The notes under the pieces: model-generated | The model's database searches: none | What the model was told of the DNA's origin: nothing | The model's input: only the letters and a program-made list of their open reading frames with translations | NCBI GenBank assembly: GCA_016350165.1 | Contig: CP066225.1 | Coordinates: forward strand, 3,286,001-3,350,000 | Direction of reading: 5' to 3' | DNA from: Planctomycetota bacterium | Lineage (GTDB): Bacteria > Planctomycetota > Phycisphaerae > Phycisphaerales > Phycisphaeraceae | Length of the DNA: 64,000 nt | Shown: piece after piece, positions 429 through 18,069 of the stretch | Layout of the letters: each line of letters begins with the position of its first letter | How positions within the stretch are numbered: position 1 is the first letter of the stretch | Translations under genes and position numbers: made by a program

Positions 429-877
429 AAAAATTAAACTCCGCAATGGTTTGGGCATCAGATTGTGGATGACTGGTGTTTTAGTGGATTATGCGTGTGG
501 TTGTGGAGTATGACAGTGTAGGTTGTTAAAAAAAGATGAAGAGTAGTTTTTACCCTATAAATGTAGCTTGAATTGTAAAAAACAGGCTATTGAGAGTGGT
601 GTGATTAGGTACAAAGTTGCGCGAATATGATGCTTAACATAGTTAGAAATTGATATCAAGAGATTTTTTCAGTCATTTAAGAGAATGAAATTGTTGTCAA
701 ATTAGGTCGCAACATTCACTTGCAGGCGCGGAGAGGGTCGTTTAGACTGCGTCACTGGTGGGAAATCAGATTTGTTGTATATGCTGTACCCCATTGGCTT
801 CACAGTGGTCCGCATTGTGAAGATCGTCGCAATCTACCGACGTTTACGTTCTTTCATAGCTCTTGGGAGGCTACGCG
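429..877. other. intergenic region between divergent genes
   Basis: About 450 bases between the minus-strand epimerase and the plus-strand secretin. It must hold both promoters, but I see no convincing -35/-10 pair and no hairpin. Short frames here (for example at 331 and 720) have no RBS or protein-like composition. Confidence 0.4.
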
Positions 878-3800
878 TTGTTCACCCGTCAGCACCTTTC
901 CGTATTCGTAGTGTGTACTGGTCTCATCACCGGTTCAGCACTGTTACTTAACGCCGCAGAAGAACCCGCTGCGACTGCCCCTACCGCTGCTGAATTGTAT
1001 GTGCGCGGTATGGATAAGTTTGATTCAGGCGAACTTCAGGCTGCGAAGGAGATCTTTCATCAGATCGATCCGATGCAGCTTCCAAAGGATCAGCGCGTAC
1101 GTTTGTACGAATCGCTGAAGTCTTTGGACGATGTCAAAGCAGAAGCAGAGCATGCCGACAAGGCAGAAGCTGTAGAAGCTGAGCATTCAGAAGAAGTCGT
1201 TGAAGCAACCAAAATCGTACCAGCAGAAGAAGTTAAGGCTCCATCAGCAGCAGATATGCTCGCTGAAGCCGATTCTCTCGTTGATACGACGAAGGCAGCC
1301 GCACTTTACGAGCAGATCCTTGCTAGCGAAGGAGCAGACGCTTCTTTGAAGGCGAGAGCAAAAGCTCGTTTGGCTCAGATTAAGCGCCAGCTTAAGTCCG
1401 ACCTCAATACAGCGCTAACCGCGCTTGCGATGGCAGAAGAAGACCTCAAAGCAGGTCGTCTGGACGAAGCAGCAGCCCGCCTTGAGATGATCAAGGAAGG
1501 CGGCGTTGAGCTTGGTTGGTTCGATAACGGTCGTATGAGCAGTCTCGCAAAGACTGTTTCAGAACGCCAAAATGCATTGGCAGCTGCAGAAGCTGCTCAG
1601 AAGCTTGCCGAAGCTGAAGCTGTAGAAGCTGCCAAGGTAGCTGAAGCCGCTGAAGTCACTAAGGCAGCGGATGCACTTGCTAAGGCTGATGCTGATAAAG
1701 CAGCAGCTGAAGAAGAGACCAAAAAAGCTCTTGAAGATCTCAATGCTGAGATGGCAGAGAAGCTTGCCGCAGCAGAAGCCAAGACTGACGTTGAAGTCAA
1801 GAAGGCAGTTGCAGCAGCAGAAGCCAAGAAAGCTGAAGAAATCGCAGCAGCAGTCGCAGCCGCTAAGGCTGAGGATGTTGAAAAGGCAGCAGCTGAAGAA
1901 GCAGCAGCCACAGCGAAGTCAGCTGATTTGATGGAAGCAGCTCGTTTGGCAGCAGCTAAGCGTAACTTCATCAAAGCTCAGGAAGCAAAAGCCAACGGCC
2001 AGAACGATTTGGCAGAAGCTTTGCTGAACAATGCTATTCAGCTTGATCCAGAAAACGAAGCATACAAGACTCAGCTTTCAGCTTTGAGTGCTACCAGTGC
2101 TGTTAAAGCACCAACTAGCGTTCTTGCAGATGTTGCACAGCAAAATGCTCTTAAGGAAGCAAAAGCCAAGGCCGACTACAAGCGTTACATGAATGACGCT
2201 AACGCTGGCCGTGTGCAAAAAGACTTCCCAGCAGCACGTAACGCTGTTGCAAATGCTAAGAATGCTCTTGCAAATGCACGCTTGGTTCTCTCAGAAGTTG
2301 AATACAAGCAACTTAAGACAGATGCAGAAACACTTGCATCAGTAATCGAAAAAGAATATCTCCAGTTTGCTAAGCTTGAAATCGAAAGAGAAAAAGTTAG
2401 GCAGCAGGAAGATCAGATCAAGAATGTGGAAGCTACTGATCGTGCGACACGTGTGAAGGTTGAATCATTGATTCGCCGTGCATTCGCATTGCGTGATGAG
2501 CAGAAGTACGAAGAAGCACTCGAGTTACTTGATAACGCTTTGTTCCTCGATCCACAAAACTTCGTCGCTAAAGGCTATCGTGACATGATTCAGGATGTCC
2601 TGTTCATGGTCGAAGCTAAGAAAGTCAACAGACTTCGTGACGTCGCACTTGCTGAATCAGCGTTGATGAACGCACAACGCACAATTCCTATCAATGAATT
2701 GATCACCTACCCAGCAGACTGGCCACAGCTCAGCGAAATCCGCTTCAAAGGTCTCGAAGAGAAAAGTGGCGAAGCAGAGCTTAACAACCGCGTTACACGC
2801 AAGCTTGCTGAACCAATCCCAGTAGAATTTGATAACTGGCAGTTGGTTAATGCTCTGAACTTCATCCGCAAGACCACTGGCGTAAATCTCTTCGTCAACT
2901 GGCCTGCACTTGAAAATGCTGGTATCGACCGTGACACATTGGTTGACCTTCAGCTCAGCAACATTCCTGCAGAGCAAGCTTTGAAGCTCGTTCTTCAGCA
3001 AGTCTCAGCAGAGGTTGAGTTCGATCCATTAGGCTACTCAATCAATAACGGTATCCTCACCGTGTCGACAGAACGCGATCTTCAGAAAGAAACTGATATC
3101 CGTACTTACGACATCCGTGACCTCCTCGTCCAAGTGCCTAACTTCTCCAATGCTCCAAGCTTCGACCTGAACGATGCACTTAGCAATACCTCTTCAGGTG
3201 GTTCAGGTGGCGGCAGCAGCAACAGTCTCTTCGGCGACGACAGCAGCGATGACGAGAATGCAAACGCACTTGATCGTGATGCAACCATCGAAATGATCAC
3301 CCAGTTGATCATTGACACTGTTGGTAGCTTTGAAGAGTGGGACATCAACGGCGGTGACGTTTCAAGTCTTAAAGAACTCAACGGTCAGCTGATCGTTAAG
3401 TCAACCCCACGCAACCACAAGCAGATTCTCGGTCTTCTTAGCCAGCTTCGTGAAACACGTGCTGTACAGATCAACGTTGAATCACGCTTCCTCGTTGTTG
3501 ACCAGAACTTCCTCGAAGAAGTCGGTGTTGACCTTGACCTCCGTTTGAACAACCTCGGTGGTGGCTTTGGCCCAATCGGTGTTAGCCAAGACTCATCAAG
3601 TCTTGCAAGCGGTGCAAGCACAACCTTGACTCCGTTCGACCGTTCAGGTGCTGAAGACTTTAGCTGGCTCGAAACTGACGACTTTAAACCAGGTACCGGT
3701 TTCGGTAATACACTCCGCAGCATGGACTTCGGTATCTCTTACATCGACGACCTCGAAGTCAACCTGCTCGTATCAGCCACTCAGGCTAACCAGCGTTCGA

Positions 3801-4435
3801 TCTCACTGACCGCTCCACGCTTGACATTCTTCAACGGTCAACGTGCATGGGTCACAGTTGCTCGCCAGATCTCATTCGTATCTGACCTCGAGCCTGTCTC
3901 AGACGCAGCTGGTTGGGACATCACAGTCTCAGTCCTCACAAGTGGTACCCTCCTCGACGTTCGTGGTACAGTCTCATCAGACCGTCGCTACGTAACTCTG
4001 ACCGTTCTCCCAAGCTTGAGCCGCACAAATGCTGACTTCGACAGATACCAGATCATTGGTACAACTGAAATTGACAACGGTGGCGACGATGAAAACGATC
4101 AGACAATCGTTCTCCAGGGCTTCATCGAAGTTCCAGAAGTTGAAATCACACAGGTTCAAGCAACAGTCAGCGTTCCTGACCGTGGCACGATCCTTCTCGG
4201 TGGCCAGCGTTTGGTCGAAGAAGTGGAAGTCGAAGCAGGCGTTCCTGTCCTCTCCAAGATTCCATTCCTCAACCGTCTGTTCACCAATACCAGCATGGCT
4301 AAGGACGAGCGTACACTTCTCATCCTTATCAAGCCTACGATTATCATCCTGAGCGAAGAAGAAGAAAAGAACTTCCCAGGCATGACACAATCAGCTGAGA
4401 GCTTCAATCTCGGTGCAACTATGTTGGCACAGTAA
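878..4435 (+). CDS. TPR/coiled-coil secretin (type II/IV secretion-type outer-membrane channel)
   Basis: A large exported protein (about 1185 aa) ending in a classical secretin domain. I chose TTG at 878 because TGGGAGG at 864-870 lies 7 bases upstream; TTG at 863 overlaps that RBS. Residues 1-27 look like a signal peptide. Residues about 230-360 are an extremely Ala/Glu/Lys-rich coiled coil. TPR-like repeats follow near 425-580. An STN-like domain lies at about 646-720 (FDNWQLVNALNFIRKTTGVN), then a Gly/Ser/Asp-rich linker at about 771-794. Secretin N and C domains run to about 1164, with the hallmark GVPVLSKIPFLNRLF and ERTLLILIKPTIII. Known secretins form multimeric outer-membrane pores for type II secretion or pili. 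No other secretion gene lies beside it, so the transported substrate is unknown. Confidence 0.85.
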   Translation: MFTRQHLSVFVVCTGLITGSALLLNAAEEPAATAPTAAELYVRGMDKFDSGELQAAKEIFHQIDPMQLPKDQRVRLYESLKSLDDVKAEAEHADKAEAVEAEHSEEVVEATKIVPAEEVKAPSAADMLAEADSLVDTTKAAALYEQILASEGADASLKARAKARLAQIKRQLKSDLNTALTALAMAEEDLKAGRLDEAAARLEMIKEGGVELGWFDNGRMSSLAKTVSERQNALAAAEAAQKLAEAEAVEAAKVAEAAEVTKAADALAKADADKAAAEEETKKALEDLNAEMAEKLAAAEAKTDVEVKKAVAAAEAKKAEEIAAAVAAAKAEDVEKAAAEEAAATAKSADLMEAARLAAAKRNFIKAQEAKANGQNDLAEALLNNAIQLDPENEAYKTQLSALSATSAVKAPTSVLADVAQQNALKEAKAKADYKRYMNDANAGRVQKDFPAARNAVANAKNALANARLVLSEVEYKQLKTDAETLASVIEKEYLQFAKLEIEREKVRQQEDQIKNVEATDRATRVKVESLIRRAFALRDEQKYEEALELLDNALFLDPQNFVAKGYRDMIQDVLFMVEAKKVNRLRDVALAESALMNAQRTIPINELITYPADWPQLSEIRFKGLEEKSGEAELNNRVTRKLAEPIPVEFDNWQLVNALNFIRKTTGVNLFVNWPALENAGIDRDTLVDLQLSNIPAEQALKLVLQQVSAEVEFDPLGYSINNGILTVSTERDLQKETDIRTYDIRDLLVQVPNFSNAPSFDLNDALSNTSSGGSGGGSSNSLFGDDSSDDENANALDRDATIEMITQLIIDTVGSFEEWDINGGDVSSLKELNGQLIVKSTPRNHKQILGLLSQLRETRAVQINVESRFLVVDQNFLEEVGVDLDLRLNNLGGGFGPIGVSQDSSSLASGASTTLTPFDRSGAEDFSWLETDDFKPGTGFGNTLRSMDFGISYIDDLEVNLLVSATQANQRSISLTAPRLTFFNGQRAWVTVARQISFVSDLEPVSDAAGWDITVSVLTSGTLLDVRGTVSSDRRYVTLTVLPSLSRTNADFDRYQIIGTTEIDNGGDDENDQTIVLQGFIEVPEVEITQVQATVSVPDRGTILLGGQRLVEEVEVEAGVPVLSKIPFLNRLFTNTSMAKDERTLLILIKPTIIILSEEEEKNFPGMTQSAESFNLGATMLAQ

Positions 4436-4460
4436 TCGAAGCTAACGCGTAAAAGAGCTA

Positions 4461-4494
4461 AAACCGCTGACTTGAAAAGGTCAGCGGTTTTTTT
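4461..4494 (+). terminator. rho-independent terminator of the secretin gene
   Basis: An 11-bp perfect stem (AAACCGCTGAC / GTCAGCGGTTT) with an 8-base loop is followed by a run of T, 25 bases after the stop codon. Confidence 0.9.
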
Positions 4495-4653: not shown

Positions 4654-6075
4654 TTGATTACCAATCTCATACTATATTGTGCATACAGTCTTGGCATATG
4701 GATAGCTGTCGCATATCTGCTCTGGATTGCTAGAAAAAGTCAGCTGGTTTGGAGTAAACCACTCTGTGGGCGTTGTGGTTACGATTTGAGAAGTCAAATC
4801 AAAGGCGGCGTTGTCATGGGCGCTTGTCCTGAGTGTGGCTGCATGCTCGGTGGTAAAAAACAGGTTCACTATGTACGTGGGCAATTCAGCATACGGCACA
4901 CAGCTCTGGCTCTATCTCCACTACTACTTTGGGCAATGATGTGGGCCGCAAATAATGTGTATGCAACTTACTATTTACCCAATGTACACACGAAAAAACG
5001 TTTGCAAACCAAAGCGGTCAATCGAGTTTCTTATCTGAAACAGCTTGAGGCAGCCAATACGCAAAGTGAAATCTGGTCTTCTGTTTATAAGGAATTAAGT
5101 ACAGGTGGTTTTGATAAAGCACAAAAAGATGCCATCACTAAAAAAATTCGTAAGTGTGCCTTTCAAGAAGGTATGGGTGATGTGAGCCCAAGCTTTAAAA
5201 GATGTTTGCAGTATGCGAAGTTCGATCAGGAAATGAGTGATGAGGAAGCAGTTGCTCTAGCCAAAAAGTTTTATGGTGAAACATTACGCATTAAGCCTGG
5301 CGTGTTTTCAGAGCGTTTATACAGCGGCGATGAACAGGTCAGATTGGATGTCAGTTGTGAAGATCGTGATGCTTTAAAGCTTCTAGGTATTGATGACCTT
5401 GTTCATATCAAAGCAGTTCACTTGAATGATGTGCATGCTGAAATCGATATTAATCCAAGAATTTCAGAAATCGATATTTATTGGTCAGGCAATATCATTC
5501 CAGGTGAGCATTGGTTTACATTCTATTACGAACGTGCTTTTGTGCGCGGCGAATACGATTTTGATGAAGAAGATGACCGTGAGCAATGGCCAGATGATTT
5601 CCTCTACTACGAAGAAGGCGAAATAAAATATCCAATCTGGGTATATAAAAAAGCTTCAGAAGCGATTCGTCTTGTAAACGATTCAGAAATCACAAAAAAA
5701 TTGCATGAGCAACTCAAAGTCACATATTGCGTTGTGAGAAATGTCCAAGGCAAGCGTTATTTATATGTTAGATTATCGCCATCCGACAAAACGATAATTG
5801 ATGATATGCAGATCTCCTATGGCATCAGTTACTGGGCAAAAAACGACCTTAACCAAACCATCGGCTCAGTCAATAAACCAATTAAACTTAAAGATTGGAT
5901 GTCAGGTTTTGAACATGAACTGCCACCAGATTGGGACTATGACACAGTAAATCTAAAAATCTCACCAGATTTTAAGAATGTAAGTTCTGATGAAGATGTT
6001 GAAGAAATTTGGGGTGGCGAGATTGTTCTCAAACAAATTCCTGTTACGAGATATGATCGTCTAATTTATGAATAG
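4654..6075 (+). CDS. zinc-ribbon membrane protein, module copy 1, type A
   Basis: 473 aa, function unknown. A membrane segment at about 5-25 is followed by a four-Cys zinc ribbon (C38-x2-C41-x16-C58-x2-C61: CGRCGYDL and CPECGCML) and a second membrane segment at about 80-102. The remaining 370 residues look extracytoplasmic. Start is TTG with AAGGCAG 6 bases upstream. It is a paralogue of the gene at 7259: same Cys spacing, same length, a shared LG(I/V)xxLxHIK segment and a shared C-terminal pattern D-V-E-x-W-x-G-E-I ending in DRLxxE. It is the first gene of an A-B-A'-B' quartet, all on this strand. Membrane-anchored proteins with such ribbons are common in planctomycetes, but no role is established to my knowledge. 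Confidence 0.7.
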   Translation: MITNLILYCAYSLGIWIAVAYLLWIARKSQLVWSKPLCGRCGYDLRSQIKGGVVMGACPECGCMLGGKKQVHYVRGQFSIRHTALALSPLLLWAMMWAANNVYATYYLPNVHTKKRLQTKAVNRVSYLKQLEAANTQSEIWSSVYKELSTGGFDKAQKDAITKKIRKCAFQEGMGDVSPSFKRCLQYAKFDQEMSDEEAVALAKKFYGETLRIKPGVFSERLYSGDEQVRLDVSCEDRDALKLLGIDDLVHIKAVHLNDVHAEIDINPRISEIDIYWSGNIIPGEHWFTFYYERAFVRGEYDFDEEDDREQWPDDFLYYEEGEIKYPIWVYKKASEAIRLVNDSEITKKLHEQLKVTYCVVRNVQGKRYLYVRLSPSDKTIIDDMQISYGISYWAKNDLNQTIGSVNKPIKLKDWMSGFEHELPPDWDYDTVNLKISPDFKNVSSDEDVEEIWGGEIVLKQIPVTRYDRLIYE

Positions 6076-6126
6076 CCAATATACCTTGAAATATTAAGTG
6101 AATAAGCAGCATCATAATTTTTATAA

Positions 6127-7188
6127 ATGATTTTTATTATGACACACTGGTACAACTACATCGATTGGTATTCTTGGCTTTTCTGGGGCTATACACCTGC
6201 TGCCTTTGGAGCCTTAATCGTCATATGTTATGGCCTCTTCAGCCGTATTCCATGGGGCAGGGTGACTTGCAGGAAATGCGGCACGGTTCTTACAGATGTT
6301 GATCCGAAAGAGAATGAAAATTGTCTACACTGTAAAGTAGAATTGAATTCAATCAACGACATTAAAATTTCACGAGGTTTAGTCCCGAAACATTTTCTTG
6401 CTGCAATAATTGTTCTCACGCTTCCTTGGCTTGGTATCTACGTTTATGGCTACAGTAAATACTATTCAGATCGTGACGCGAGATTGCCCGAAACGCTTCA
6501 GTCATTAAATCATGAAACATTCATGTTGCAGTTTTCTGCTCAATACAGTGAAAAGTTACTGTGGCTTGAACTCATTGATCGTCTTAATAATCAAAAAATT
6601 ACGCGCAAAGATATTGCTCTCATTATGAAAGAGATTATTAGGCAAACTAAATTACAAACTAGAAAAGATTCTCCTGCACATTGTGCAGAAGCAATAACAA
6701 TTGCACATCAACAAAACCTTGTAAATGATAAAGATCTTGTTGCATTAGCTGAGCAATTAATTCCTGATCCAGAACCAGTTCAAATAATTGAACAATATCA
6801 TTATGACAAAAAAAGCTTAGAGCTTAGAACGCAGACTTTTACAAACATTGCAAACTATCGTGATTGGTCAAATCTTTTTGAAATATACTATTACGTAACC
6901 AAAGCTACTGCAGATGGATTTGATGCTGAAATTATCGATGGTTATGACGATATGGGGTTAGGGAAAATTTCCTTTTTCTATCCACTTCGATTAACCAACG
7001 GCAAAATGAAGCTTGATATCGAAGTGACGTACCATGTATTGCCACTTGATATGACTTATGGACTTAAAGACTTCAACCTTGAAGATCTTGTCGGTTCTCT
7101 TGGCAAATGGAAAAAAACAATGAAGACTACTTGGTACGTCGATTTGCAAGCGCAAGAGAAAGAACAATTTATTCTCAGTAAAAATTAA
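6127..7188 (+). CDS. zinc-ribbon membrane protein, module copy 1, type B
   Basis: 353 aa, function unknown. It has an N-terminal membrane segment (about 20-38), a ribbon with shorter spacing than type A (C48-x2-C51-x14-C66-x2-C69), and a second membrane segment at about 95-113 (ITLPWLGIY-like, with the LPW motif also in the type B paralogue). The tail is probably outside the cytoplasm. The paralogue at 8679 has identical Cys spacing and a matching C-terminus (DLVGSLG here, DIVGELG there). ATG at 6139 is an alternative start; neither has a clear RBS. It lies 51 bases after the type A gene and is probably co-transcribed with it. Confidence 0.65.
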   Translation: MIFIMTHWYNYIDWYSWLFWGYTPAAFGALIVICYGLFSRIPWGRVTCRKCGTVLTDVDPKENENCLHCKVELNSINDIKISRGLVPKHFLAAIIVLTLPWLGIYVYGYSKYYSDRDARLPETLQSLNHETFMLQFSAQYSEKLLWLELIDRLNNQKITRKDIALIMKEIIRQTKLQTRKDSPAHCAEAITIAHQQNLVNDKDLVALAEQLIPDPEPVQIIEQYHYDKKSLELRTQTFTNIANYRDWSNLFEIYYYVTKATADGFDAEIIDGYDDMGLGKISFFYPLRLTNGKMKLDIEVTYHVLPLDMTYGLKDFNLEDLVGSLGKWKKTMKTTWYVDLQAQEKEQFILSKN

Positions 7189-7258
7189 CACACAAAACTA
7201 CCATGCCAATTTCGCGTCATAAGCATTAACTAAACAGTTCTTGATGAGGCCGTATATT

Positions 7259-8668
7259 ATGAATTTCTTAATATGCATACTGCCAATAACCGGTATTTGG
7301 CTCGGCATCATATTCTTACTCATCTGTGCATATAAAGGCCGCCGCATTTGGATCGGCCCGCATTGTGCCATATGCAATTATGATGTGCGGCAACAAGTTC
7401 TAAGTAACAGCATCACAGGCTCTTGTCCCGAGTGCGGCCACGATCTTTCTCAACCTAAATCAGTTCACTTCACAAAAGGTATTCTCAGTTGGCCTCTTTT
7501 GGGTTCAGCAATCCTCGTACTTCTCCTCGCCATCGCGTGGCCCATTGGTTACAAACTTATCTACAAACAGTACATCCAAAAACCACAAGCCTCACAAGAA
7601 CTCTCACCCCGCGATATGAAAAAGCTTGCTCCCGATAAACTGCTCGAATATCTCGAAAAGAATAGTGATAAAACAAGAAGCCCATGGATCTGGGATGCAA
7701 TCAAAATCCATGTGCAGCAAAACGCTTATGTAAATGAAGATAAAATTAGAATCTTAAATGTAATCGAAAAAGTCAAAGCCAACGACGGTACAATTTGGCC
7801 TCACGATAACATGTTCGCATACATTAAGCAGTGGGTTCAAGATATCTACCCCGAAGAAGAACGCCCCGACGTACTCATCAAACTTTCAGGCGGCTACCCC
7901 GCATTACTTCAAAAAAATCGTGTTTTCTCAGGCAGAACCAAACCTCGCTTCACACTTACCGGAGCAACTTATCACGACACAAGAAAACTTGGTGTTACCT
8001 ATCTTCTTCATATTAAATCTGTCTACATCGATAACAAACAAATTGAACGTATTGACCAATTCGGACAGGGCGATCGTCATTTTTCAATCAGCCATGATTG
8101 GACCGTTGGGCAACATTCGATTGAAGTTGAATATGAGCTCATGTTGGTGAAAGGTGAAAAACACTTCTTTGATCGCAATAATTGGCCAGACAATCCACTT
8201 CTTCATAAAACCAGTAAAATTCAATTAACCGTTACTTGTCACGATGGCGATTTGCCAACCGATCACTTCGTTAAAAAAATAAAAGATCAATCAATTACAG
8301 AGCTACTAAATAAGCAACTGAAGATTCGCCGCTGTCATGTGAGAACACGCAAGGGCAAACGCTATCTGCAAATTTTTCCACAAGGCGTGCCAAGTAAAAC
8401 GGCGAACAACGATACTTATATTGATCTCGCTTTGAAAATTGATGCCGGTGATCAAGCATTCGAAGTTTTCTCGACAGCGATTCGAAACAGTAGAGACTGT
8501 TATGAAATTGAAATAGATGAAACTTTTAATGCCAAACAAATCAATCTGACTTTTATTGGTCAGAATATAAACTTCCGAGGCCGACTCGATGTTGAAAAAG
8601 CATGGAATGGTGAAATTCAATTCAATAACATCAATGTCATTTATCTAGACCGTCTAACTCAAGAATAG
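7259..8668 (+). CDS. zinc-ribbon membrane protein, module copy 2, type A
   Basis: About 469 aa, paralogue of the 4654 gene. I chose ATG at 7259 because GATGAGG lies 9 bases upstream and the N-terminus then aligns with the paralogue; TTG 7241 and ATG 7244 are upstream options. Membrane segment at about 3-24, ribbon C36-x2-C39-x16-C56-x2-C59 (CAICNYD and CPECGHD), second membrane segment at about 77-98. The outer part keeps LGVTYLLHIKSV, a W(P)DN segment and the C-terminal D-V-E-x-W-x-G-E-I ... DRL pattern. Divergence from copy 1 is large (mostly short matching blocks), so the duplication is old. The stop codon overlaps the RBS of the next gene, which suggests translational coupling. Confidence 0.7.
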   Translation: MNFLICILPITGIWLGIIFLLICAYKGRRIWIGPHCAICNYDVRQQVLSNSITGSCPECGHDLSQPKSVHFTKGILSWPLLGSAILVLLLAIAWPIGYKLIYKQYIQKPQASQELSPRDMKKLAPDKLLEYLEKNSDKTRSPWIWDAIKIHVQQNAYVNEDKIRILNVIEKVKANDGTIWPHDNMFAYIKQWVQDIYPEEERPDVLIKLSGGYPALLQKNRVFSGRTKPRFTLTGATYHDTRKLGVTYLLHIKSVYIDNKQIERIDQFGQGDRHFSISHDWTVGQHSIEVEYELMLVKGEKHFFDRNNWPDNPLLHKTSKIQLTVTCHDGDLPTDHFVKKIKDQSITELLNKQLKIRRCHVRTRKGKRYLQIFPQGVPSKTANNDTYIDLALKIDAGDQAFEVFSTAIRNSRDCYEIEIDETFNAKQINLTFIGQNINFRGRLDVEKAWNGEIQFNNINVIYLDRLTQE

Positions 8669-8678
8669 GAGCATAACA

Positions 8679-9710
8679 ATGTATTTCTCATCTTGGGCAT
8701 ACATGAAGTATTGGATGATCTATCTATACGCACCAGGCCTTGTCGCAGTCATCATTCTTCTCTATCTTAGCTTCCGCAATAAACGCTTGTGGAACAGGAT
8801 CGCCTGCAAATCTTGCAAGTATGACCTCTCTTTGCTCTCGCCGGATCAAACAACCGCTTGTCCAAGTTGTGATGCACCACTCAACTTCAAAAGGGGTTAT
8901 CGCATTTCGCGCAGTTTTAACTTACGTTACCTCATTTTGGCAATACTCTTAATTACACTTCCATGGGGCGGTCTTGCGATCAGCGATTACTACCGATTCC
9001 AAAATGCTCTCAAAAACGGCGGCCCATCTGCACTTAAATATTTAGACAACACGCAACTCGCGACACAACTCGCAGGTAAATTTTCTCAGCCATGGGTTTA
9101 TCATGAAATCAGAGATCGGATAAAAGCGGGCACAATCACCAAACACGAAATAGGCGTCATCCTGACAGCATTCATGAACGAGTGGCAAGCCGAAATAAAA
9201 AAAGGCAACAACCCGCACATTTGGACTTACACAGAAGATGTTTTCATTGAAGGCTACAGGCAAAATGTAATCGACTCAGATCAACTCATGATCATCGCGA
9301 ATCGTATATTTAAAAACAGTTTTCAAATCGTTTTTACGCCAAATGTCTATCTCACTAATCGTGCAGCCAAACCAACATTAAATCTTCATTTCAACGATAA
9401 ATCATTTGGCAACTCACTCGACCAAACCTTCAAAGTCATCAACGTCATCAACCAAATTCGCATCGATGGCAAACCCATCACATTCAACATCGAACGTTTT
9501 TCAGGTGATATGGCTCAAATTAAATGTGAGCGCAACGAACTCATGAAAGGCGTCTTTGATTTTGAATTGGATATCAAGCGTTATGTCATGCACGTCGACG
9601 ATGTTGCTGGCTTAGGTGATGTACTTGGTCAAAACTTCGATGAAAAAGACATCGTTGGCGAACTTGGCACCATCAAAGAAACACTCAAAGACAAAATTTC
9701 AATCGAATAA
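8679..9710 (+). CDS. zinc-ribbon membrane protein, module copy 2, type B
   Basis: 343 aa, paralogue of the 6127 gene. The start ATG has a strong RBS, AGGAG at 8667-8671, which overlaps the stop codon of the preceding type A gene, so the two are almost certainly translated together. Membrane segment at about 14-32, ribbon C43-x2-C46-x14-C61-x2-C64 (CKSCKYDL and CPSCDAPL), second membrane segment at about 80-98 containing LPWGG. The C-terminus DIVGELGTIKETL matches DLVGSLGKWKKTM of copy 1. The tight coupling of A' and B' implies the two types act as a pair, perhaps a heteromeric membrane complex (inference). Confidence 0.7.
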   Translation: MYFSSWAYMKYWMIYLYAPGLVAVIILLYLSFRNKRLWNRIACKSCKYDLSLLSPDQTTACPSCDAPLNFKRGYRISRSFNLRYLILAILLITLPWGGLAISDYYRFQNALKNGGPSALKYLDNTQLATQLAGKFSQPWVYHEIRDRIKAGTITKHEIGVILTAFMNEWQAEIKKGNNPHIWTYTEDVFIEGYRQNVIDSDQLMIIANRIFKNSFQIVFTPNVYLTNRAAKPTLNLHFNDKSFGNSLDQTFKVINVINQIRIDGKPITFNIERFSGDMAQIKCERNELMKGVFDFELDIKRYVMHVDDVAGLGDVLGQNFDEKDIVGELGTIKETLKDKISIE

Positions 9711-9735
9711 TCAAACTATCGTTTGAACCACATTA

Positions 9736-10875
9736 CTACCGAATCGATTCATCAACCTGTGGCGTTGTATGTTCCAAAATCGCCAACAAACAAATCACCG
9801 CAAACGTATTCACTGCCGCTAAAATCGCCTGCCACTTATCAAGCGTTCCCAACATAATTCCCGACAACCCCGTCACAATCGTGCACAGCCAGATGATCAG
9901 CACCGCCGACCTGCGTGACAATCCCTTACGCACCAGTCGATGTGAAAAGTGTTGATGATCACCAGAAAGTGGTGACCGTCCTTGCGCCAACCTGATTAAC
10001 GTCACTGAAACAAAATCATACAACGGTATCGCCAAAATCATCAGCGGCATCAATACCCCATACCAATGCCCTGGATGCACAGACGACTCCGGATCAAAAT
10101 ATGTCGTCCTAACCGACAGCACAGCTATCAACGTACCAATCACAAGCGAGCCACCATCACCCATAAACATTTTCGCAGGCGGAAAGTTAAACACCAAAAA
10201 CGCAATCAGTGCACCCAACAACAGTGCTGCCAACGTCGCTACAAACCATTGCCCACCAATCAACGTTGCCGCCAAATAAATCGCCGTACAGATCGCCGCA
10301 ACACCTGCCGACAACCCATCCATATTATCCAGCATGTTGAACGCATTAATGATCACCGTGAACCACAACACCGATGCACTCACCGAAATCACCGTGCCCA
10401 GCAATCCCAAATATTCCTCACCTCCCAAAAACTTCAACACATGCATATCTGCAAACACGACCAACGTCGTCGCAGCAATCAATTGCACCGCCAACTTCAC
10501 ATACGGTCCCAGTGGTCGTCTGTCATCGATCATCCCCATCAAATGTAAAATTGCCAAAGCAATCAATATCGCACCACCCATCGACGTTCGTGATCGCAAC
10601 CCATCCAAGTGCATATACACCGTCGGCAGATATTCTTCATACACCTCTTTAGGCACTATCCAGATCCCAAACAAAATCAAAATCATCGGGATCGCTACAG
10701 CCCAGAAAATCCCAATCCCACCTGTGTTAGGCACCGCTACCAAATGCTTCTTGTGCGCTTCTTCACCAATCTGATCAAGCAGCCCAGCACGACGTGACGC
10801 ATACAGAATCACAGCCATGATCGGAAACCCAATCAAAAACGAAACCACAATAAATGAAAGACATATCTGAACCAT
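9736..10875 (-). CDS. WecA/TagO/MraY-family polyprenyl-phosphate sugar-1-phosphate transferase
   Basis: A multi-membrane-span enzyme that moves a sugar-1-phosphate from a UDP-sugar to undecaprenyl phosphate at the inner membrane, the first step of O-antigen, wall-glycan or exopolysaccharide assembly. I chose ATG at 10875-10873, which starts directly with a hydrophobic helix (MVQICLSFIVVSFLIGF); the frame extends to 10995 but that stretch is not membrane-like. Family motifs are present: DDRRPLGP (about 117-124), NMLDNMDGLSAG (about 180-191), the catalytic MGDGGS (about 238-243) and HQHFSHR (about 307-313). The last motif is typical of the WecA/TagO branch, so I prefer that to MraY. It is convergent with the zinc-ribbon operon, only 25 bases away. 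Confidence 0.88.
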   Translation of the reverse strand: MVQICLSFIVVSFLIGFPIMAVILYASRRAGLLDQIGEEAHKKHLVAVPNTGGIGIFWAVAIPMILILFGIWIVPKEVYEEYLPTVYMHLDGLRSRTSMGGAILIALAILHLMGMIDDRRPLGPYVKLAVQLIAATTLVVFADMHVLKFLGGEEYLGLLGTVISVSASVLWFTVIINAFNMLDNMDGLSAGVAAICTAIYLAATLIGGQWFVATLAALLLGALIAFLVFNFPPAKMFMGDGGSLVIGTLIAVLSVRTTYFDPESSVHPGHWYGVLMPLMILAIPLYDFVSVTLIRLAQGRSPLSGDHQHFSHRLVRKGLSRRSAVLIIWLCTIVTGLSGIMLGTLDKWQAILAAVNTFAVICLLAILEHTTPQVDESIR

Positions 10876-11021
10876 GAGATGATCATTCTTTGAAAGGATC
10901 GCTAGGTTCAAGGCTCCTCGCGCCTCATCCAACCCAGCTTTTCGTAAGACCCCATTATACCTCAAACTCTCCCCCGCCATACATCTCCAATCCATTCCAC
11001 CTGTGGATAAGCCGCACCCAC

Positions 11022-11050
11022 AAAAAAAGCTGAGGACCTGAATCCTCAGC
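11022..11050 (-). terminator. rho-independent terminator of dapB
   Basis: Read on the minus strand: GCTGAGGA, a 6-base loop, TCCTCAGC, then seven T. It lies 27 bases past the dapB stop codon. Confidence 0.88.
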
Positions 11051-11076
11051 CTGTCATTTTAGTCTCATCCCCTTCA

Positions 11077-11880
11077 TCACCCATTCAGATTCAGCACGTC
11101 CTTCATCGTATATCGCCCCACTTTCTGATTCACCAGCCACGCCGCCGTCTTAAGTGCTCCTCTCACATAAGAATCACGTGACGTCGATACATGCTTAATC
11201 TCCAGCCTTTCACCCAATGCCGCAAAGTACGCCGTATGCTCACCCGGATGATCACCAATCCGCAGCGTCTGCACCGTGATCTCATTCGGCTTCCTCAAGC
11301 AATCATCCCCATATCGCTCAAAAACCACATCCTTCTCAAAATCATGGTCCGTCGCATCGCAAATATGCTTCGCTAGCGTGATCGCCGTACCCGACGGTGC
11401 ATCCTTTTTGAACCGGTGATGCGCTTCCATGATCTCAATGTCATATTCATCTCCAAGCAACTGAGCAGCCTTCGCCGCCAGCACGTTCAGCACGTTCACC
11501 ACCAGCGAAAAATTCGATGCCCAGATAATTGGGATCTCCTTAGCCGCCTCATCGATCATTGCCTCATGCTCAGCTCCAAGCCCCGTCGTCCCAATCACCA
11601 GAGGCAACTTTCGTTCAACACACACATCAATCACTTTTCCCAGCACCGCAGGCACCGAAAAATCAATCACAGCGTCCACATCAGCCCCTTCTGGCAGCCC
11701 ATCTGTCAGTGGGACATTGATCGTTCCAGCCCCCGCAAGCTCCCCTGCATCCCTTCCCAGCCGCTCACAGCTTCCTGAATCCACCGCTGCTGTCACACAC
11801 AACCCTTCACTTTCCGTGCCCAACGCCACCAATCGTCTTCCCATCCTCCCGTCAGCTCCGAATATCGCGAGTTTTGTCAT
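11077..11880 (-). CDS. dapB: 4-hydroxy-tetrahydrodipicolinate reductase
   Basis: 267 aa, the usual DapB length. It reduces 4-hydroxy-tetrahydrodipicolinate with NAD(P)H in the diaminopimelate/lysine pathway, needed for both peptidoglycan and lysine. Visible are the Rossmann motif FGADGRMG (7-14), GTTG (97-100), and the signature EAHHRFKKDAPSGTA (152-166) with the catalytic His pair and Lys. ATG at 11880-11878 was chosen over the upstream in-frame start at 11937 because GGGATGGA sits just before it and residue 3 then begins the first Rossmann strand. It is followed by its own terminator, so it is probably transcribed separately from the downstream WecA-like gene. Confidence 0.95.
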   Translation of the reverse strand: MTKLAIFGADGRMGRRLVALGTESEGLCVTAAVDSGSCERLGRDAGELAGAGTINVPLTDGLPEGADVDAVIDFSVPAVLGKVIDVCVERKLPLVIGTTGLGAEHEAMIDEAAKEIPIIWASNFSLVVNVLNVLAAKAAQLLGDEYDIEIMEAHHRFKKDAPSGTAITLAKHICDATDHDFEKDVVFERYGDDCLRKPNEITVQTLRIGDHPGEHTAYFAALGERLEIKHVSTSRDSYVRGALKTAAWLVNQKVGRYTMKDVLNLNG

Positions 11881-12307
11881 TTTCCATCCCAAAATTAAGG
11901 TTTTTTTGCCTGATCCACTGTTCCACAGGCCACTCATTCACAATAATCACACCGCTTCAACCGAGCAAATCTTTCTCATTCACCCCAATTCCACACGATA
12001 GGTTGGGTAATACAAATCAGTTTTAACGCCTTTCCACCGATTTGACCCCTATCAACCCTCAGGAATGCTATACACACGCCCATATATGCGTTAAAATCTA
12101 ATTGCACAAAGCGTGGCTTAAACCGCGCCTCCTGCCTGAATTAAAGCAATTATTATAACCAGAGTGTTTTTCTCTTGCTGCATGAATCTTGATTGTTTCA
12201 CGGAGCGTTTTCGCCTCGGGTCCCTTCAACCTTATACAGCAACAGGATCTCTCAAGTTTCTTGAGTCACTCGGTCCAGATGAACCTCATGTATTAGCGAG
12301 TGTAGCC
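11881..12307. other. intergenic region between divergent dapB and TPR gene
   Basis: About 430 bases. The stretch 12164-12307 is open in frame with the TPR gene and could be coding if a GTG at 12164 is used. Otherwise I see no hairpin, repeat or clear promoter pair. Confidence 0.35.
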
Positions 12308-13771
12308 TTGGCATTATTCGGTAAGAAAAACAAAAGCGAAGCTGAACCTAAAACGTTCAAACGGGATCTCAAAAAAGCACGCCGATTCTTCGAGCACGCC
12401 AACACATACGCAGATTCACGTAACTACGACGGTGCAATCGAAATGTATGTCTCCGGCCTCAAGCACGACCCCGATAACATGGAAGTGCACGAAGCTATCT
12501 TTGACGTCGCAAAACGCCGCAAAGTCGGCGGCGGCAAACCGGCTGGCTTCAAAGAAAAAATGATGGGTGGCGGCTCCACACCGATCGAAAAAATGCTGCA
12601 CGCAGAAAAACTCTGGGCCAAAGACATGCTCAACTGTGATCACATGGCCGACGTCATGAAGCACGCAGTCGATGCAACCTCCGAAGGCGATGACCTCCTC
12701 ATGGAAGACGTCGCATACTGGGTTGGCTCACAACTCATCGAATTCAACACTCAGCAAAAAAAATCAGACAAACTCTATCGCACCGCAGTCGATCTCTTCT
12801 CGGAAATCGGTGCATACGATAAAGCCGTCGAAGCATGCAAGTGGCTCGTCCGTAACAACGACCGTAACGACAAGCTACGCTTCGAACTCAAACAACTCGA
12901 AGCTCAGCAATACTCCATGGCTTCTGATGAAGGCTCCTCCTTCCGTGACACCATCCGTAACGAAGAAGGCCAAGCCATCACCGAAATCGAAAACGCAACC
13001 ACTGCTACAAAATCGCAGCTCGACCAACTCATCGACGCGAAACGCGCCGAAGTCGAAGAAGATCCAGCCGACGTCGATCGCAAACTCAAACTCGCCGAAG
13101 CACTTCTACGCAAAGAAGAAATGGACGAGGAAAACGAAGCAATCGACATCTTCCAGTCAGTCTTCGACGAAACAGGACAATACCGATACAAAGTCAAAAT
13201 CGGCGACATCGCTATCAAGCAAGGTAACCGAAAAATTCGCGCTCTACGCAATCAATACGCGGACAACCCCGGCGACGAAAACCTCAAAACTGCTTTCAAA
13301 CAAGCACGAAAAGAACAACTCGTCTTCGAACTCAAAGAATTCGGCGAACGTGTCACCAACTACCCAACTGACCTCGGCCTCAAATATGAACTCGGCCGCC
13401 GTCAGCATCAAGCCGGTCAAATCGATGAAGCCATCGGCACATTCCAGCAAGCAAAACAAGACCCCAAACGTCGCTCCGCCGCAGCCTTCTATCTCGGCGA
13501 TTGTTACCTCAAAAAGGGCTGGATGGACGAAGCTATCGACACACTCAAAGAAGGCGTCGAAAACCACAAGGTCCCAGACGACCGTGTCGCTATGGACCTC
13601 AACTACCTCCTTATGGATGCACTCGAAAAGTCAGCCATCAAGAAGGAAGACGCAGCACTCGCAAAAGAAGCTCGCGAAATCGGCTCCGACATCCTCCAAA
13701 TCAACATCAACTACAAAGACATCAAAGATCGCGTCAACAAACTACGCGCTCTCGTCGATAAGTTCTCATAA
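12308..13771 (+). CDS. TPR-repeat protein of unknown function
   Basis: About 488 aa, cytosolic, rich in charged helices. The most natural start is TTG at 12308, giving (M)ALFGKKNK followed at once by a TPR unit (FFEHANTYADSRNYDGAIEMYVSGLKHDPDN). The frame is open to a GTG at 12164, but those 48 residues look unlike a protein start. A Gly-rich linker (VGGGKPAGFKEKMMGGG) follows the first repeat. More TPR-like units lie at about 350-400 (YELGRRQHQAGQIDEAIGTF) and 405-430 (YLGDCYLKKGWMDEAIDTL). TPR proteins act as scaffolds; nothing here shows the partner. Codons end strongly in C on this strand, as in its neighbours. Confidence 0.75.
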   Translation: MALFGKKNKSEAEPKTFKRDLKKARRFFEHANTYADSRNYDGAIEMYVSGLKHDPDNMEVHEAIFDVAKRRKVGGGKPAGFKEKMMGGGSTPIEKMLHAEKLWAKDMLNCDHMADVMKHAVDATSEGDDLLMEDVAYWVGSQLIEFNTQQKKSDKLYRTAVDLFSEIGAYDKAVEACKWLVRNNDRNDKLRFELKQLEAQQYSMASDEGSSFRDTIRNEEGQAITEIENATTATKSQLDQLIDAKRAEVEEDPADVDRKLKLAEALLRKEEMDEENEAIDIFQSVFDETGQYRYKVKIGDIAIKQGNRKIRALRNQYADNPGDENLKTAFKQARKEQLVFELKEFGERVTNYPTDLGLKYELGRRQHQAGQIDEAIGTFQQAKQDPKRRSAAAFYLGDCYLKKGWMDEAIDTLKEGVENHKVPDDRVAMDLNYLLMDALEKSAIKKEDAALAKEAREIGSDILQININYKDIKDRVNKLRALVDKFS

Positions 13772-13800
13772 GTTGATGCATAGCGAGGATGTGAATCCTG

Positions 13801-13834
13801 CAATTCAAGTAGCCGCGACCTGACAGGTCGCCGG
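13801..13834 (-). repeat. intergenic hairpin element, copy a (variable-arm type)
   Basis: On the minus strand: CCGGCGACCTGTCAGGTCGCGG, an almost perfect palindrome (GCGACCTG-T-CAGGTCGC), followed by CTACTTGAATTG. The tail matches the copy at 56407 (GGCTACTTTGAATTG), while the hairpin arms are completely different. It lies 30 bases downstream of the TPR gene. Confidence 0.6.
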
Positions 13835-13856
13835 TCTTTGAATCAAAACGAACGCT

Positions 13857-13882
13857 AAAGCCCACGTTTATCGTGGGCTTTT
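13857..13882 (+). terminator. terminator of the TPR gene
   Basis: A 10-bp stem AAAGCCCACG / CGTGGGCTTT with a 5-base loop, followed by a short T run. It lies 85 bases after the stop codon, beyond repeat copy a. Confidence 0.75.
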
Positions 13883-13925
13883 CCATAAAAACAACATGCA
13901 CCAACAGATAAACATATAATCAAGC

Positions 13926-13970
13926 AACACAATAGCCGCCAATCCACGATCGGCGCGCTCACCCCTCAAA
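13926..13970 (-). repeat. intergenic hairpin element, copy b
   Basis: On the minus strand: GAGGGGTGAGCGCG, then a hairpin GCCGATC-GTG-GATTGGC, then GGCTATTGTG. Its 5' flank and hairpin are almost identical to copies l (56407) and o (63285), which have GATCGGC in the second arm. Confidence 0.65.
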
Positions 13971-14038
13971 ACCTCCGCACCCCAGATTAAGTAACTATTG
14001 TCATCTATCCGCATATTAGACATACAGGAAACTCTCCA

Positions 14039-14806
14039 ATGTCAGCAAGAGCAATCGCCGTCATCCCCGCCAGATACGACTCCACCCGTTTTCCGGGCAA
14101 ACCACTTGCCGACAAAACCGGCAAGCCCCTCATCCAACACGTCGTCGAACAAGTGCGTCGCACACACCGAGTCGTACGCATCATCGTCGCCACTGACGAC
14201 CAACGCATCATCGACGCCGTCGAAGCCTGTGGCAGCGAAGCAATGATGACACGCAAAGATCATCCCAACGGCACATGCCGCATCGCCGAAGTCGTTGAAA
14301 AGTTGCAAACCGAATACCGCGAAAAAGGCGAAATCATGCCACGCATCATCGTCAACGTGCAAGGCGATGAACCCGACGTTGAACCCGAAGTTATCGACAA
14401 ACTCATCGACGGCCTCGATAACGATTCCGAAGCAGGCATGGCAACCCTCGCTTCAGAATTCGCACCAGACGAAGACCCCGCCGACCCCAACATCGTCAAA
14501 CTCATCCTTAATCAAAAGGGTCACGCCATCTACTTCTCACGTTCACTCATCCCACACGACCGTGACGGCAAAGGCGAAAATAAGCCACTCAAGCACCCCG
14601 GCCTATACGCCTACCGCCCCGACTTCCTCATGAAGTACGTTACCCTTGAAGAAACCCCACTCGAACGCACCGAAATGCTCGAACAGCTCCGCGCTATCGA
14701 ACATGGCTACCCAATCGCTGTCATCAAAGCCAACATCCAACATCACGGCATCGACACCCCCGAACAATACGAAGAATTCCTCCAACGCTTCAATCAAAAC
14801 AAATAA
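14039..14806 (+). CDS. kdsB: 3-deoxy-manno-octulosonate cytidylyltransferase
   Basis: 255 aa, the normal length. It joins CTP and Kdo to make CMP-Kdo for the inner core of lipopolysaccharide, so the organism should make an LPS-type outer membrane. The N-terminal nucleotide-binding signature is clear (AVIPARYDSTRFPGKPL), as are VATDD (about 50-54), VNVQGDEP (the metal-binding Asp, about 108-115) and the C-terminal HPGLYAYR and LEQLRAIEHGY. The usual H-x-SGTDR motif reads HPNGTCR here, a mild variant. The ATG has CAGGAA 8 bases upstream. No other LPS gene adjoins it, and repeat elements flank it on both sides. Confidence 0.95.
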   Translation: MSARAIAVIPARYDSTRFPGKPLADKTGKPLIQHVVEQVRRTHRVVRIIVATDDQRIIDAVEACGSEAMMTRKDHPNGTCRIAEVVEKLQTEYREKGEIMPRIIVNVQGDEPDVEPEVIDKLIDGLDNDSEAGMATLASEFAPDEDPADPNIVKLILNQKGHAIYFSRSLIPHDRDGKGENKPLKHPGLYAYRPDFLMKYVTLEETPLERTEMLEQLRAIEHGYPIAVIKANIQHHGIDTPEQYEEFLQRFNQNK

Positions 14807-14928
14807 CGAACCACTACACATTCATGATCCCAAACCACCTCAACCACTACATAGCTCACCTCACTAAACCAACGACACATTAGAGTGAAAAAACTCAGTA
14901 GGTTAAAAATATAATCAAAAAACAAACA

Positions 14929-14947
14929 GTCTAATCCATGATTAGAC
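14929..14947. repeat. CTAATC-N3-GATTAG palindrome
   Basis: Perfect 8-bp arms GTCTAATC / GATTAGAC around CAT. One of several similar short palindromes found next to gene ends in this window (21391, 50469, 51006, 51373, 53880). Confidence 0.5.
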
Positions 14948-14964
14948 TAATGAGCGATTAGAAT

Positions 14965-14996
14965 AAAAACACCGACTCTACCAGTCGGTGTTTTTA
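14965..14996 (+). terminator. terminator-like hairpin after kdsB
   Basis: AAAAACACCGACT and AGTCGGTGTTTTT form a long stem flanked by A on the left and T on the right, so it could work in both directions. It is 160 bases after the kdsB stop codon. Confidence 0.75.
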
Positions 14997-15021
14997 TTTG
15001 ATTGATGATTCAGAACTATCA

Positions 15022-15090
15022 GCCAACGATACGCTGCAGCGAAGCAACTCAACAATAGCCAGCGAGCCTCGCTCGTCGTGCGCACCCCTC
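15022..15090 (-). repeat. intergenic hairpin element, copy c (full length)
   Basis: On the minus strand: GAGGGGTGCGCAC, hairpin arms around CGAGCGAGGCTCGC, then TGGCTATTGTTGAGTTGC, then TTCGCTGCAGCGTATCGTTGG. It carries both the hairpin half and the conserved GCGTATCGTTGG half of the family. Confidence 0.65.
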
Positions 15091-15126
15091 ATTTTTCACT
15101 CTACGCACACTTTAATGACAACCACC

Positions 15127-15190
15127 AACCAACGATACGTTGTAGTGAAACATACTTCCCTAGCTGCGGATCTTTCCGAGAGACGTTCCG
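15127..15190 (-). repeat. intergenic hairpin element, copy d
   Basis: On the minus strand the 3' block reads GTTTCACTACAACGTATCGTTGG. Upstream is a different small hairpin (CGGA-AAGA-TCCG) followed by CAGCTAG. It is in tandem with copy c, same orientation. Confidence 0.6.
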
Positions 15191-15372
15191 TTGAAGTATT
15201 ATCTCCTCCCAATCTAAGATCACGATCAATCATCCATCAACACAATCTACCATCCAACTTTCCCTAAAAACGATCAAAGCAAATCATGTCTTACGACCAC
15301 ATCACCCCACCTACTGCCAACACAGTAGATGGGTCGCGCCGAATTTTACCAGCCCGCATAAACGCATTCAGA

Positions 15373-15546
15373 AGGGCAGCAGCGCGCACGAAAATGAAAG
15401 TTTTTGGTTTTTGGCCTGATTTCTGATGGTTTTGGACCATTTCTAGCTGATTTTTGACCAGAACGTTCTATTTCTGACTCGTTTTAAACCGCAATTTGGC
15501 CAATATTGAGCTTTCATGCGCGCTGCCCAAACATTTCGTGCGCACA
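15373..15546. repeat. segment bounded by inverted repeats
   Basis: The left end GGGCAGCAGCGCGCACGAAA (continuing ATGAAAG) is matched in inverted orientation by CTTTCATGCGCGCTGCCC at 15513-15530 and by TTTCGTGCGCAC at 15535-15546. The interior (about 110 bases) has repeated CTGATTT/TTTTGACC words and no open frame of interest. It could be a very small mobile element or a structured RNA. Confidence 0.4.
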
Positions 15547-15590
15547 AATACGCAAAAATCGTGCTGCATATGGAAACCAATTTGATATAT

Positions 15591-15624
15591 AAAAAATGGG
15601 AAGCAACCAACGAGGCTGCTTCCC
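15591..15624 (-). terminator. terminator downstream of the spondin PEP-CTERM gene
   Basis: Read on the minus strand: GGGAAGCA, loop, TGCTTCCC, then ATTTTTT. It is about 170 bases after the stop codon, so the transcript would have a long 3' tail. Confidence 0.7.
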
Positions 15625-15797
15625 GCGTAAGCGTAATAACGGAAAGTTATTGTTTAATCGAGAATATTGACCAGATGCTCAATGACGGCTTGGTTGCAAC
15701 TGCATGGCAGTACTTGGTTTACCGGCATCAAACATCTGATCAACGAGGACGGCGTTCATTGAACGCACTCAAAGTAGTCTTCTATTTAAATAATTAC

Positions 15798-18027: not shown

Positions 18028-18069
18028 GTAAAGGGTGTTGGGATTGGGATGGCGATGAAGGGTTGCGGT

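What the first reader, a model, noticed from the sequence alone, without database searches (positions are those of the whole stretch)
4654..9710. Two diverged copies of a two-gene zinc-ribbon membrane module (A-B-A'-B')
A and A' share the Cys spacing x2-16-x2, B and B' share x2-14-x2, and each type has its own length and C-terminal signature. A' and B' are translationally coupled. Retention of the pair in alternating order after a duplication this old suggests that A and B work together and that the two copies have separate jobs. I know of no assigned function; a membrane complex with cytosolic metal ribbons and large outer domains could be a transport, sensor or envelope-assembly system.
Basis: partly seen in the sequence, partly recalled or inferred. 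Interest (0 to 1): 0.62.

Follow-up and report, generated by a model that had tools for sequence, protein, structure and literature searches.

The report
Paired fast-evolving zinc-ribbon membrane proteins
A marine planctomycete carries seven copies of a two-gene unit for membrane proteins with a metal-binding knuckle inside and fast-changing domains outside; they fit no named family we searched and their job is unknown, but they look like a matched pair that recognises or builds something at the cell envelope.

Summary
A-B-A'-B' is real. The same genome (length identical to Poriferisphaera heterotrophicis ZRK32) has two more arrays, A-B..A-B and A-B-A-B-A-B: seven A-B pairs, always A first. 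The congener, matching P. corsica KS4, has four, one with B broken by an in-frame stop. A and B distances agree, so pairs multiplied as units. A and B are homologous: B is A without the last beta domain. Both belong to an unnamed superfamily of the class, also seen in other tandem arrays. For the window proteins no Pfam or NCBIfam model reached its cut-off, and PHROGs, PADLOC and PDB gave nothing convincing. Full-length B was found only in this genus; A-like genes elsewhere stood alone in four of four loci examined. Likely orthologues are 27-38% identical beside flanking genes at 74-89%, so low identity does not prove great age. Predicted build: cytosolic ribbon, helical stalk, one (B) or two (A) Ig/FN3-like outer domains. 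I favour an A-B receptor or scaffold pair with a conserved ribbon and changing outer surface; function is inferred.

The parts
4460..4491 (+). intrinsic-terminator-like stem-loop between the secretin gene and A; suggests that the four genes are a transcription unit of their own
   Evidence: 14-pair stem then T-rich tail; 6 terminator-like sites found, 4.3 expected, so a consensus match only
4654..6075 (+). gene A, 473 aa: TM, zinc ribbon, TM, helical domain, two beta domains
4765..4836 (+). zinc ribbon of A (residues 38-61, C-x2-C-x16-C-x2-C)
6127..7188 (+). gene B, 353 aa: as A but without the second beta domain
6268..6333 (+). zinc ribbon of B (residues 48-69, C-x2-C-x14-C-x2-C)
7241..8668 (+). 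gene A', 475 aa
7247..7342 (+). A' first membrane helix (residues 3-34)
7364..7435 (+). A' zinc ribbon (residues 42-65), predicted cytosolic
7490..7573 (+). A' second membrane helix (residues 84-111)
7607..7885 (+). A' helical domain (residues 123-215), predicted extracytoplasmic
7901..8242 (+). A' first beta-sandwich (residues 221-334), Ig/FN3-like
8321..8635 (+). A' second beta-sandwich (residues 361-465), absent from B
8679..9710 (+). gene B', 343 aa
8805..8870 (+). B' zinc ribbon (residues 43-64)
9321..9704 (+). B' single beta domain (residues 215-342), low-confidence model

Best explanation
Shown: A and B are homologous proteins that multiply as an A-B unit, and both belong to an unnamed superfamily found in the class Phycisphaerae. 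The tree favours, without proof, one genus-level branch for A and B. Predicted: two membrane helices with the N-terminus out, a zinc-ribbon loop in the cytosol, and the C-terminal part outside the inner membrane, made of a helical stalk and one (B) or two (A) Ig/FN3-like beta-sandwiches. Inferred: A and B are made together, often by coupled translation, and sit together in the cytoplasmic membrane as a mixed complex. The long arm of A and the short arm of B contact an extracytoplasmic partner or ligand that changes quickly in evolution. The more conserved ribbon joins, on the inside, a partner common to the copies, or simply holds the two helices together. Each array would be an isotype with its own outer specificity.
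For: A-B order in 7 of 7 A genes of the genome and 4 of 4 found in the congener. A stop/B start overlap in 6 of 11 pairs, other A-to-B gaps 10-51 nt; B-to-next-A gaps 52-154 nt in 4 of 5 cases, the fifth split by another gene. Largely congruent trees and Mantel r 0.86 over 10 pairs, 0 of 20000 permutations as high. In the hydropathy scan 22 of 23 proteins show at least two membrane segments, and in all 22 the ribbon loop has more K+R than D+E. Models: mean pLDDT 68.7 (A') and 59.9 (B'); Foldseek tops for A' are mostly two-domain FN3/Ig-like proteins. P_A1/cP_A1: ribbon 62% identical, dN/dS 0.14; helical, beta1 and beta2 domains 29-38% and 0.66-0.78; four flanking genes with finite dS 0.09-0.16.
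Against: No ligand, partner or phenotype. Linked duplication alone gives congruent trees. In the 45-protein tree three A proteins (the Q array) stand with B rather than with the other A (87/74; one A clade is not rejected, p 0.21), so A and B may not be two clean types. The B comparison shows the ribbon contrast only weakly (0.42 against 0.43-1.20). A' and B' have no counterpart at the matching site of the congener, and one B there is broken, so the units look dispensable. Fast change may be relaxed constraint, not recognition. Models rest on two-sequence alignments, and fold matches (Z at most 7.1) are nonspecific.
Confidence: 0.35

Rival explanations
1. Envelope scaffold or assembly proteins: A and B are structural parts of the planctomycete inner membrane or periplasm, where the beta-sandwiches pack against each other or against wall or surface polymers, and sequence drift is tolerated because only the fold matters.
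For: Arrays lie among genes that look like housekeeping genes, with no repeated enzyme or transporter neighbour noticed; two-domain beta-sandwich model with nonspecific matches that include the biofilm scaffold RbmA and a pilus chaperone; many copies in one genome.
Against: Strong difference in copy number between two species of one genus (23-24 other family frames against 5) and a broken B argue against a core structural role; neighbours were read, not tested statistically.
Confidence: 0.25
2. A largely dispensable paralogous family that grows by tandem duplication and decays: weakly constrained membrane proteins without a shared specific function for the A-B pair; adjacency reflects duplication of a linked pair only.
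For: dN/dS 0.33-0.57 in the three A/B comparisons where it could be measured; one B broken in the congener; short forms without the second beta domain fall in at least two separate places of the tree (one origin for all of them rejected, p 7e-7; one origin for B and the G168/G228 short forms not rejected, p 0.097); copy number differs between congeners.
Against: Ribbon cysteines kept in nearly all copies although most are only 20-40% identical; 21 of 22 A and B frames of the genus intact; A-then-B order in 11 of 11 pairs; overlap of A stop and B start in 6.
Confidence: 0.25
3. Metal- or redox-responsive membrane sensor or transport adaptor: the ribbon binds zinc (or a redox state) in the cytosol and gates the outer domains or a partner transporter.
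For: The four-cysteine ribbon between two membrane helices holds most of the invariant columns and is the slowest part of P_A1; very weak resemblance of the B' ribbon to the PqiA/YebS model (E 0.049, 12.7 bits against a cut-off of 260).
Against: No transporter, sensor kinase or metal-uptake gene noticed beside the arrays read; ribbons are not uniform (C-x6-C in four A, C-x13-C in cP_A1, C-x-C in Q_B3); ribbons of this kind are often only structural (recalled).
Confidence: 0.12

Closest known systems
Unnamed Phycisphaerae superfamily defined here ('C-type', 447-651 aa, motif DDHPxCxKCGYDLxG..CPECG)
   Same: Same architecture from the first membrane helix to the C-terminal W-x-G-E-I..V-x-V motif; profile-profile E 4.9e-39 to A and 2.4e-25 to B; also in tandem arrays
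   Different: No alternating long-short order seen, apart from one short form in L012; ribbon context mostly DDHP instead of WSxP; often longer.
Two-domain FN3/Ig-like ectodomains (class I cytokine receptors, pilus chaperones, RbmA)
   Same: Two tandem beta-sandwiches in the A' model; Foldseek E 4e-5 to 8e-4 in the 50 rows listed
   Different: TM-scores are low (at most 0.29 in those rows), 7-12% identity, and no defining receptor or chaperone motif was tested; a common arrangement only
PqiA/YebS family
   Same: Membrane protein with cytosolic four-Cys ribbons (recalled); weak ribbon-region hit for B'
   Different: Far below the curated cut-off (12.7 against 260 bits); topology and partner genes differ as far as recalled, not tested
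General zinc-ribbon domains (DUF1451, DZR, Zn_ribbon_3)
   Same: Ribbon of two C-x2-C knuckles
   Different: Below the cut-off for the window proteins; best E 0.009-0.03 in other members, whose cut-offs were not printed

Membership tests
Phycisphaerae zinc-ribbon superfamily (defined here) | TM - four-Cys ribbon - TM at the N-terminus | tested here: met
   23 of 23 A and B proteins have four Cys in the loop (six with other spacing in one half), 22 of 23 at least two hydropathy peaks; window A's second peak is under the threshold, Q_B2 has a third
Phycisphaerae zinc-ribbon superfamily (defined here) | profile similarity beyond the ribbon, through helical and beta domains | tested here: met
   hhalign A-C over 428 columns, prob 100; A-B over 297 columns, prob 99.9; B-C over 291 columns, prob 99.7
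Phycisphaerae zinc-ribbon superfamily (defined here), long form | second beta domain with C-terminal W-x-G motif: A and A' | tested here: met
Phycisphaerae zinc-ribbon superfamily (defined here), long form | second beta domain with C-terminal W-x-G motif: B and B' | tested here: not met
   alignment to A ends near A residue 313; B and B' are short forms
PqiA/YebS transporter subunit | score above the NCBIfam cut-off of TIGR00155 | tested here: not met
   12.7 bits against 260.35, B' only
PqiA/YebS transporter subunit | MCE-domain partner gene next to it (recalled) | not tested
   neighbouring genes were read, but no MCE profile was run on them
DUF1451 / double zinc ribbon families | score above the Pfam gathering score (window proteins) | tested here: not met
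   15.4 against 26.1 bits (DUF1451, B'), 12.6 against 27.3 (DZR, B)
Known anti-phage defence proteins (PADLOC) | match to a PADLOC model | tested here: not met
   no family at E up to 1 for the four window proteins
FN3/Ig-like two-domain receptors | tandem beta-sandwich fold | tested here: inconclusive
   Foldseek E 4e-5, VIA-align Z at most 7.1, model pLDDT 68.7 from two sequences
Zinc-binding protein | binds Zn(II) through the four Cys | not testable with these tools
   needs metal analysis of purified protein

The most novel reading that the evidence does not exclude
A lineage-specific diversifying recognition system: each A-B pair is a two-chain envelope receptor whose outer helical and FN3-like domains change several times faster than neighbouring genes while the cytosolic ribbon that reports to a common partner changes less. 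Arrays of pairs would give a cell a repertoire against changing outside agents such as phages, competitors or surface polymers.
Probability: 0.15. Interest if true: 0.78.

Novelty: new variant of a known kind. Interest (0 to 1): 0.45.

Why it matters
Few Phycisphaerae are in culture (PMC11266412, start of abstract in listing), and 37-38 frames of this one's genome belong to one membrane-protein superfamily that no library searched here names. The A-B pair gives a defined, testable unit: eleven pairs in two cultured species, always in one order, with fast protein change in the outer part and, at least in A, a more conserved inner ribbon. If the outer change is adaptive, it marks an unknown point of contact between planctomycetes and their surroundings; if not, it is a clear case of a large family under weak constraint.

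Tried and rejected
Known family: not found. The four window proteins reached no cut-off in Pfam or NCBIfam, nothing better than E 0.056 in PHROGs and nothing in PADLOC. Weak single hits that I set aside: LIC11086 family to B' (E 0.0028, 17 bits against 350); among 13 A proteins one hit to L544_NTransf (E 3e-4) and one to Shr-like_HID (E 0.0011), whose place and cut-off were not printed; ribbon families in a few A and B members. The A profile hit Hax3 chains in the PDB (E 3e-4), but no single stretch passed on its own; the B profile hit cytochrome c3 at E 0.03, over the Cys region.

Plasmid, phage or viral carriage: A found no relative in plasmids or phages by tblastn at E 0.01. A ribbon pattern gave none in viral contigs, but that pattern has the spacing of other A proteins and does not fit the window's own A. 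B, A' and B' were not searched there.

Great age from low identity: rejected as proof. Cys spacing as type signature: rejected. Three or more origins of the short form: not shown. Counting helical repeats with simple patterns gave nothing useful. A wider alignment for the structure models was not obtained: the search for related loci in genome contigs found no relative, and my pattern scan was mistyped by one base (checked), so its zero says nothing. The models therefore rest on window sequences only. Fold searches gave only common beta-sandwich or mixed matches; the helical stalk was not tested alone.

Literature: three searches for the family (listings only) showed no paper on it among the rows listed.
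Full report
What is there. The four genes are present as described: A 4654-6075, B 6127-7188, A' 7241-8668, B' 8679-9710, all on the + strand. A terminator-like stem-loop at 4460-4491 separates them from the upstream secretin-like gene (a consensus match; 6 found against 4.3 expected). The genome is one contig of 5,234,020 bases. That is exactly the length printed for Poriferisphaera heterotrophicis ZRK32 (PMC10945688, passages). The same-genus genome G001 has 4,291,168 bases, the length printed for P. corsica KS4 (PMC10945688 and PMC7783415, passages). The two names are inferred from these lengths.

More pairs. Searching the genome with A and B led to two further arrays. The first (L009, minus strand) is A527-B354, then an oppositely oriented gene, then A544-B353. 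The second (L010/L024, minus strand) is A545-B350-A508-B340-A495-B340. So 7 of 7 A genes are followed by a B. In G001 four A genes were found: A537-B355-A532-B353 beside the same peptidase-like gene as in L009 (U32 type, name recalled), A526-B346, and one A518 at the site that matches the window. At that last site the secretin, glycosyltransferase, DapB and TPR genes flank it in the same order (the last three names recalled from sequence). Its B has one in-frame stop: frames of 141 and 219 aa, each about 33% identical to window B. Thus 4 of 4 are followed by a B, one broken.

Coupling. In 6 of 11 pairs the A stop and the B start overlap by 1-4 nt. The other five A-to-B gaps are 10, 30, 39, 44 and 51 nt. 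B-to-next-A gaps are 52, 101, 102 and 154 nt, and in L009 a gene lies between. Starts are the mechanical first start codons.

The pair multiplies as a unit. A and B trees agree in the main: Q1 with (Q2,Q3), and P1 with cP1. The two window B proteins stand together; of the window A proteins, A stands with the congener's A at the same site, and A' is unresolved. Over 10 intact pairs the distance matrices correlate with r 0.86, and none of 20,000 permutations was as high. Physical linkage alone could give this, so it does not prove contact.

A, B and a larger superfamily. A and B profiles match over 297 columns (prob 99.9, E 1.2e-34): B is an A without its second beta domain. Both match a set of 14 other Phycisphaerae proteins (C-type): A over nearly its whole length (E 4.9e-39) and B with E 2.4e-25. 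With the C-type profile the genome has 23-24 further open frames besides the A and B genes, and G001 five, at E 1e-8 (frames that matched in two pieces counted once). C-type genes also lie in arrays. In a tree of 45 proteins B is one group (90/83) and genus A and B together are one (88/87), neither starred. The Q-array A proteins stand with B (87/74), though one clade of all 11 genus A is not rejected (p 0.21). One origin of all short forms is rejected (p 7e-7), since one lies inside the C-type; one origin of B and the G168/G228 short forms is not (p 0.097). Many branches are long, so deep order is unsure.

Distribution. The B profile gave matches at E 1e-12 in 26 of 397 class genomes, G000 and G001 included. 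Full-length B was seen only in these two; the rest are partial matches, mostly to longer proteins, and B-sized tandem genes occur in G168 and G228. In that search at most five candidates per genome were scored. The A profile gave 15 of 397 at E 1e-18, at most three scored per genome. Whole-length A-like genes outside the genus are in G014, G017, G161 and G284, and a nearly whole one in G391. I examined four of these five loci; each has one gene of this kind (L049 also has an unlike 180-aa ribbon frame on the other strand). The C-type profile gave 26 of 120 class genomes, at most 11 scored each, and 2 of 149 phylum genomes, both inside the order, at most nine scored each, all at E 1e-15. Absence is therefore weak evidence.

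Topology and fold. Hydropathy gives exactly two segments in 21 of 23 proteins, three in Q_B2 and one in window A, whose second is under the threshold. In the 22 with two or more, the ribbon loop has more K+R than D+E, which by the positive-inside rule puts the ribbon in the cytosol and the C-terminal part outside. AlphaFold models from window sequences only have mean pLDDT 68.7 and pTM 0.44 for A', and 59.9 and 0.40 for B'. They show two membrane helices, a small beta ribbon, a helical domain, and two beta-sandwiches in A' or one in B'. Foldseek matches for A' are mostly two-domain FN3/Ig proteins (best E 4e-5), and VIA-align Z is at most 7.1. For B' nothing reached E 0.001, and Z was at most 6.6. 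Viral models gave mixed matches with low TM-scores. These show a common fold, not a function.

Fast change. Between the two species five flanking proteins are 74-89% identical. Likely orthologous A and B proteins are 27-38%. Third codon positions differ about as much in five A/B comparisons (0.49-0.69) as in three flanking genes (0.48-0.60), while second positions differ far more: 0.38-0.46 against 0.06-0.16. A Nei-Gojobori estimate gives dN/dS 0.57, 0.55 and 0.33 for three A/B comparisons and 0.09-0.16 for four flanking genes; two A/B comparisons and one flanking gene are saturated. Within P_A1/cP_A1 the ribbon stands at 0.14 and the helical and beta domains at 0.66-0.78; TM1 is 0.52 and TM2 saturated. 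Within P_B1/cP_B1 the ribbon is at 0.42 and the other parts at 0.43-1.20, so the contrast is weak there. The domain limits were set by eye, the estimate is rough at this divergence, and the controls are five conserved genes, not a random set of envelope proteins.

Reading. The shown part is a homologous, co-duplicating pair in an unnamed superfamily. The inferred part is a mixed membrane complex with a conserved inner ribbon and a changing outer surface. I put 0.35 on a receptor- or scaffold-like A-B complex with a changing outside partner, 0.25 on a structural envelope role, 0.25 on weakly constrained family growth, and 0.12 on a metal or redox sensor or adaptor. The most novel reading, a diversifying recognition repertoire, is not excluded.

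They weakened two statements: three separate origins of the short form are not shown, and A and B are not shown to be two clean clades.

Noticed in passing
L047:4067-5200 (minus): At the site in G001 that matches the window, B is split by one in-frame stop into frames of 141 and 219 aa while the frame otherwise stays open: recent loss, sequencing error or read-through cannot be told apart.
   Followed up: partly
L012:2869-11001: A C-type array with a long-short-long-long order: a 346-aa short form without the second beta domain sits between 593- and 605-aa forms.
   Followed up: partly
L098:8297-10489 and L099:4530-7144: Two relatives outside the genus have tandem short forms only (351 and 371 aa; 362, 145 and 361 aa) at one shared place; the best tree puts them apart from B, but one origin is not rejected.
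   Followed up: partly
G000 and G001 whole genomes: 23-24 C-type frames in the window's genome against 5 in the congener: a large copy-number difference inside one genus.
   Followed up: partly
window 863-4435: 1190-aa protein with TPR-like and Ala/Glu-rich stretches and a C-terminal secretin domain (Pfam E 9.8e-21; best NCBIfam MshL, 96 bits against a cut-off of 250); 74% identical in the congener.
   Followed up: no
L009:5858-6961: A gene on the opposite strand (looks like an old-yellow-enzyme type flavin oxidoreductase, name recalled) lies between the two A-B pairs of this array; the congener's array has no gene there.
   Followed up: no
window 8001-20000 and 56001-64000: Strong GC skew that changes sign near 16 kb (-0.27/-0.19 to +0.33) and reaches +0.55 at the right end; it may follow gene direction.
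   Followed up: no
L009:9711-12941 (minus): Two further membrane-like proteins of 734 and 338 aa lie directly upstream of the array on the same strand, 44 nt from the first A, and look alike by eye; not searched.
   Followed up: no
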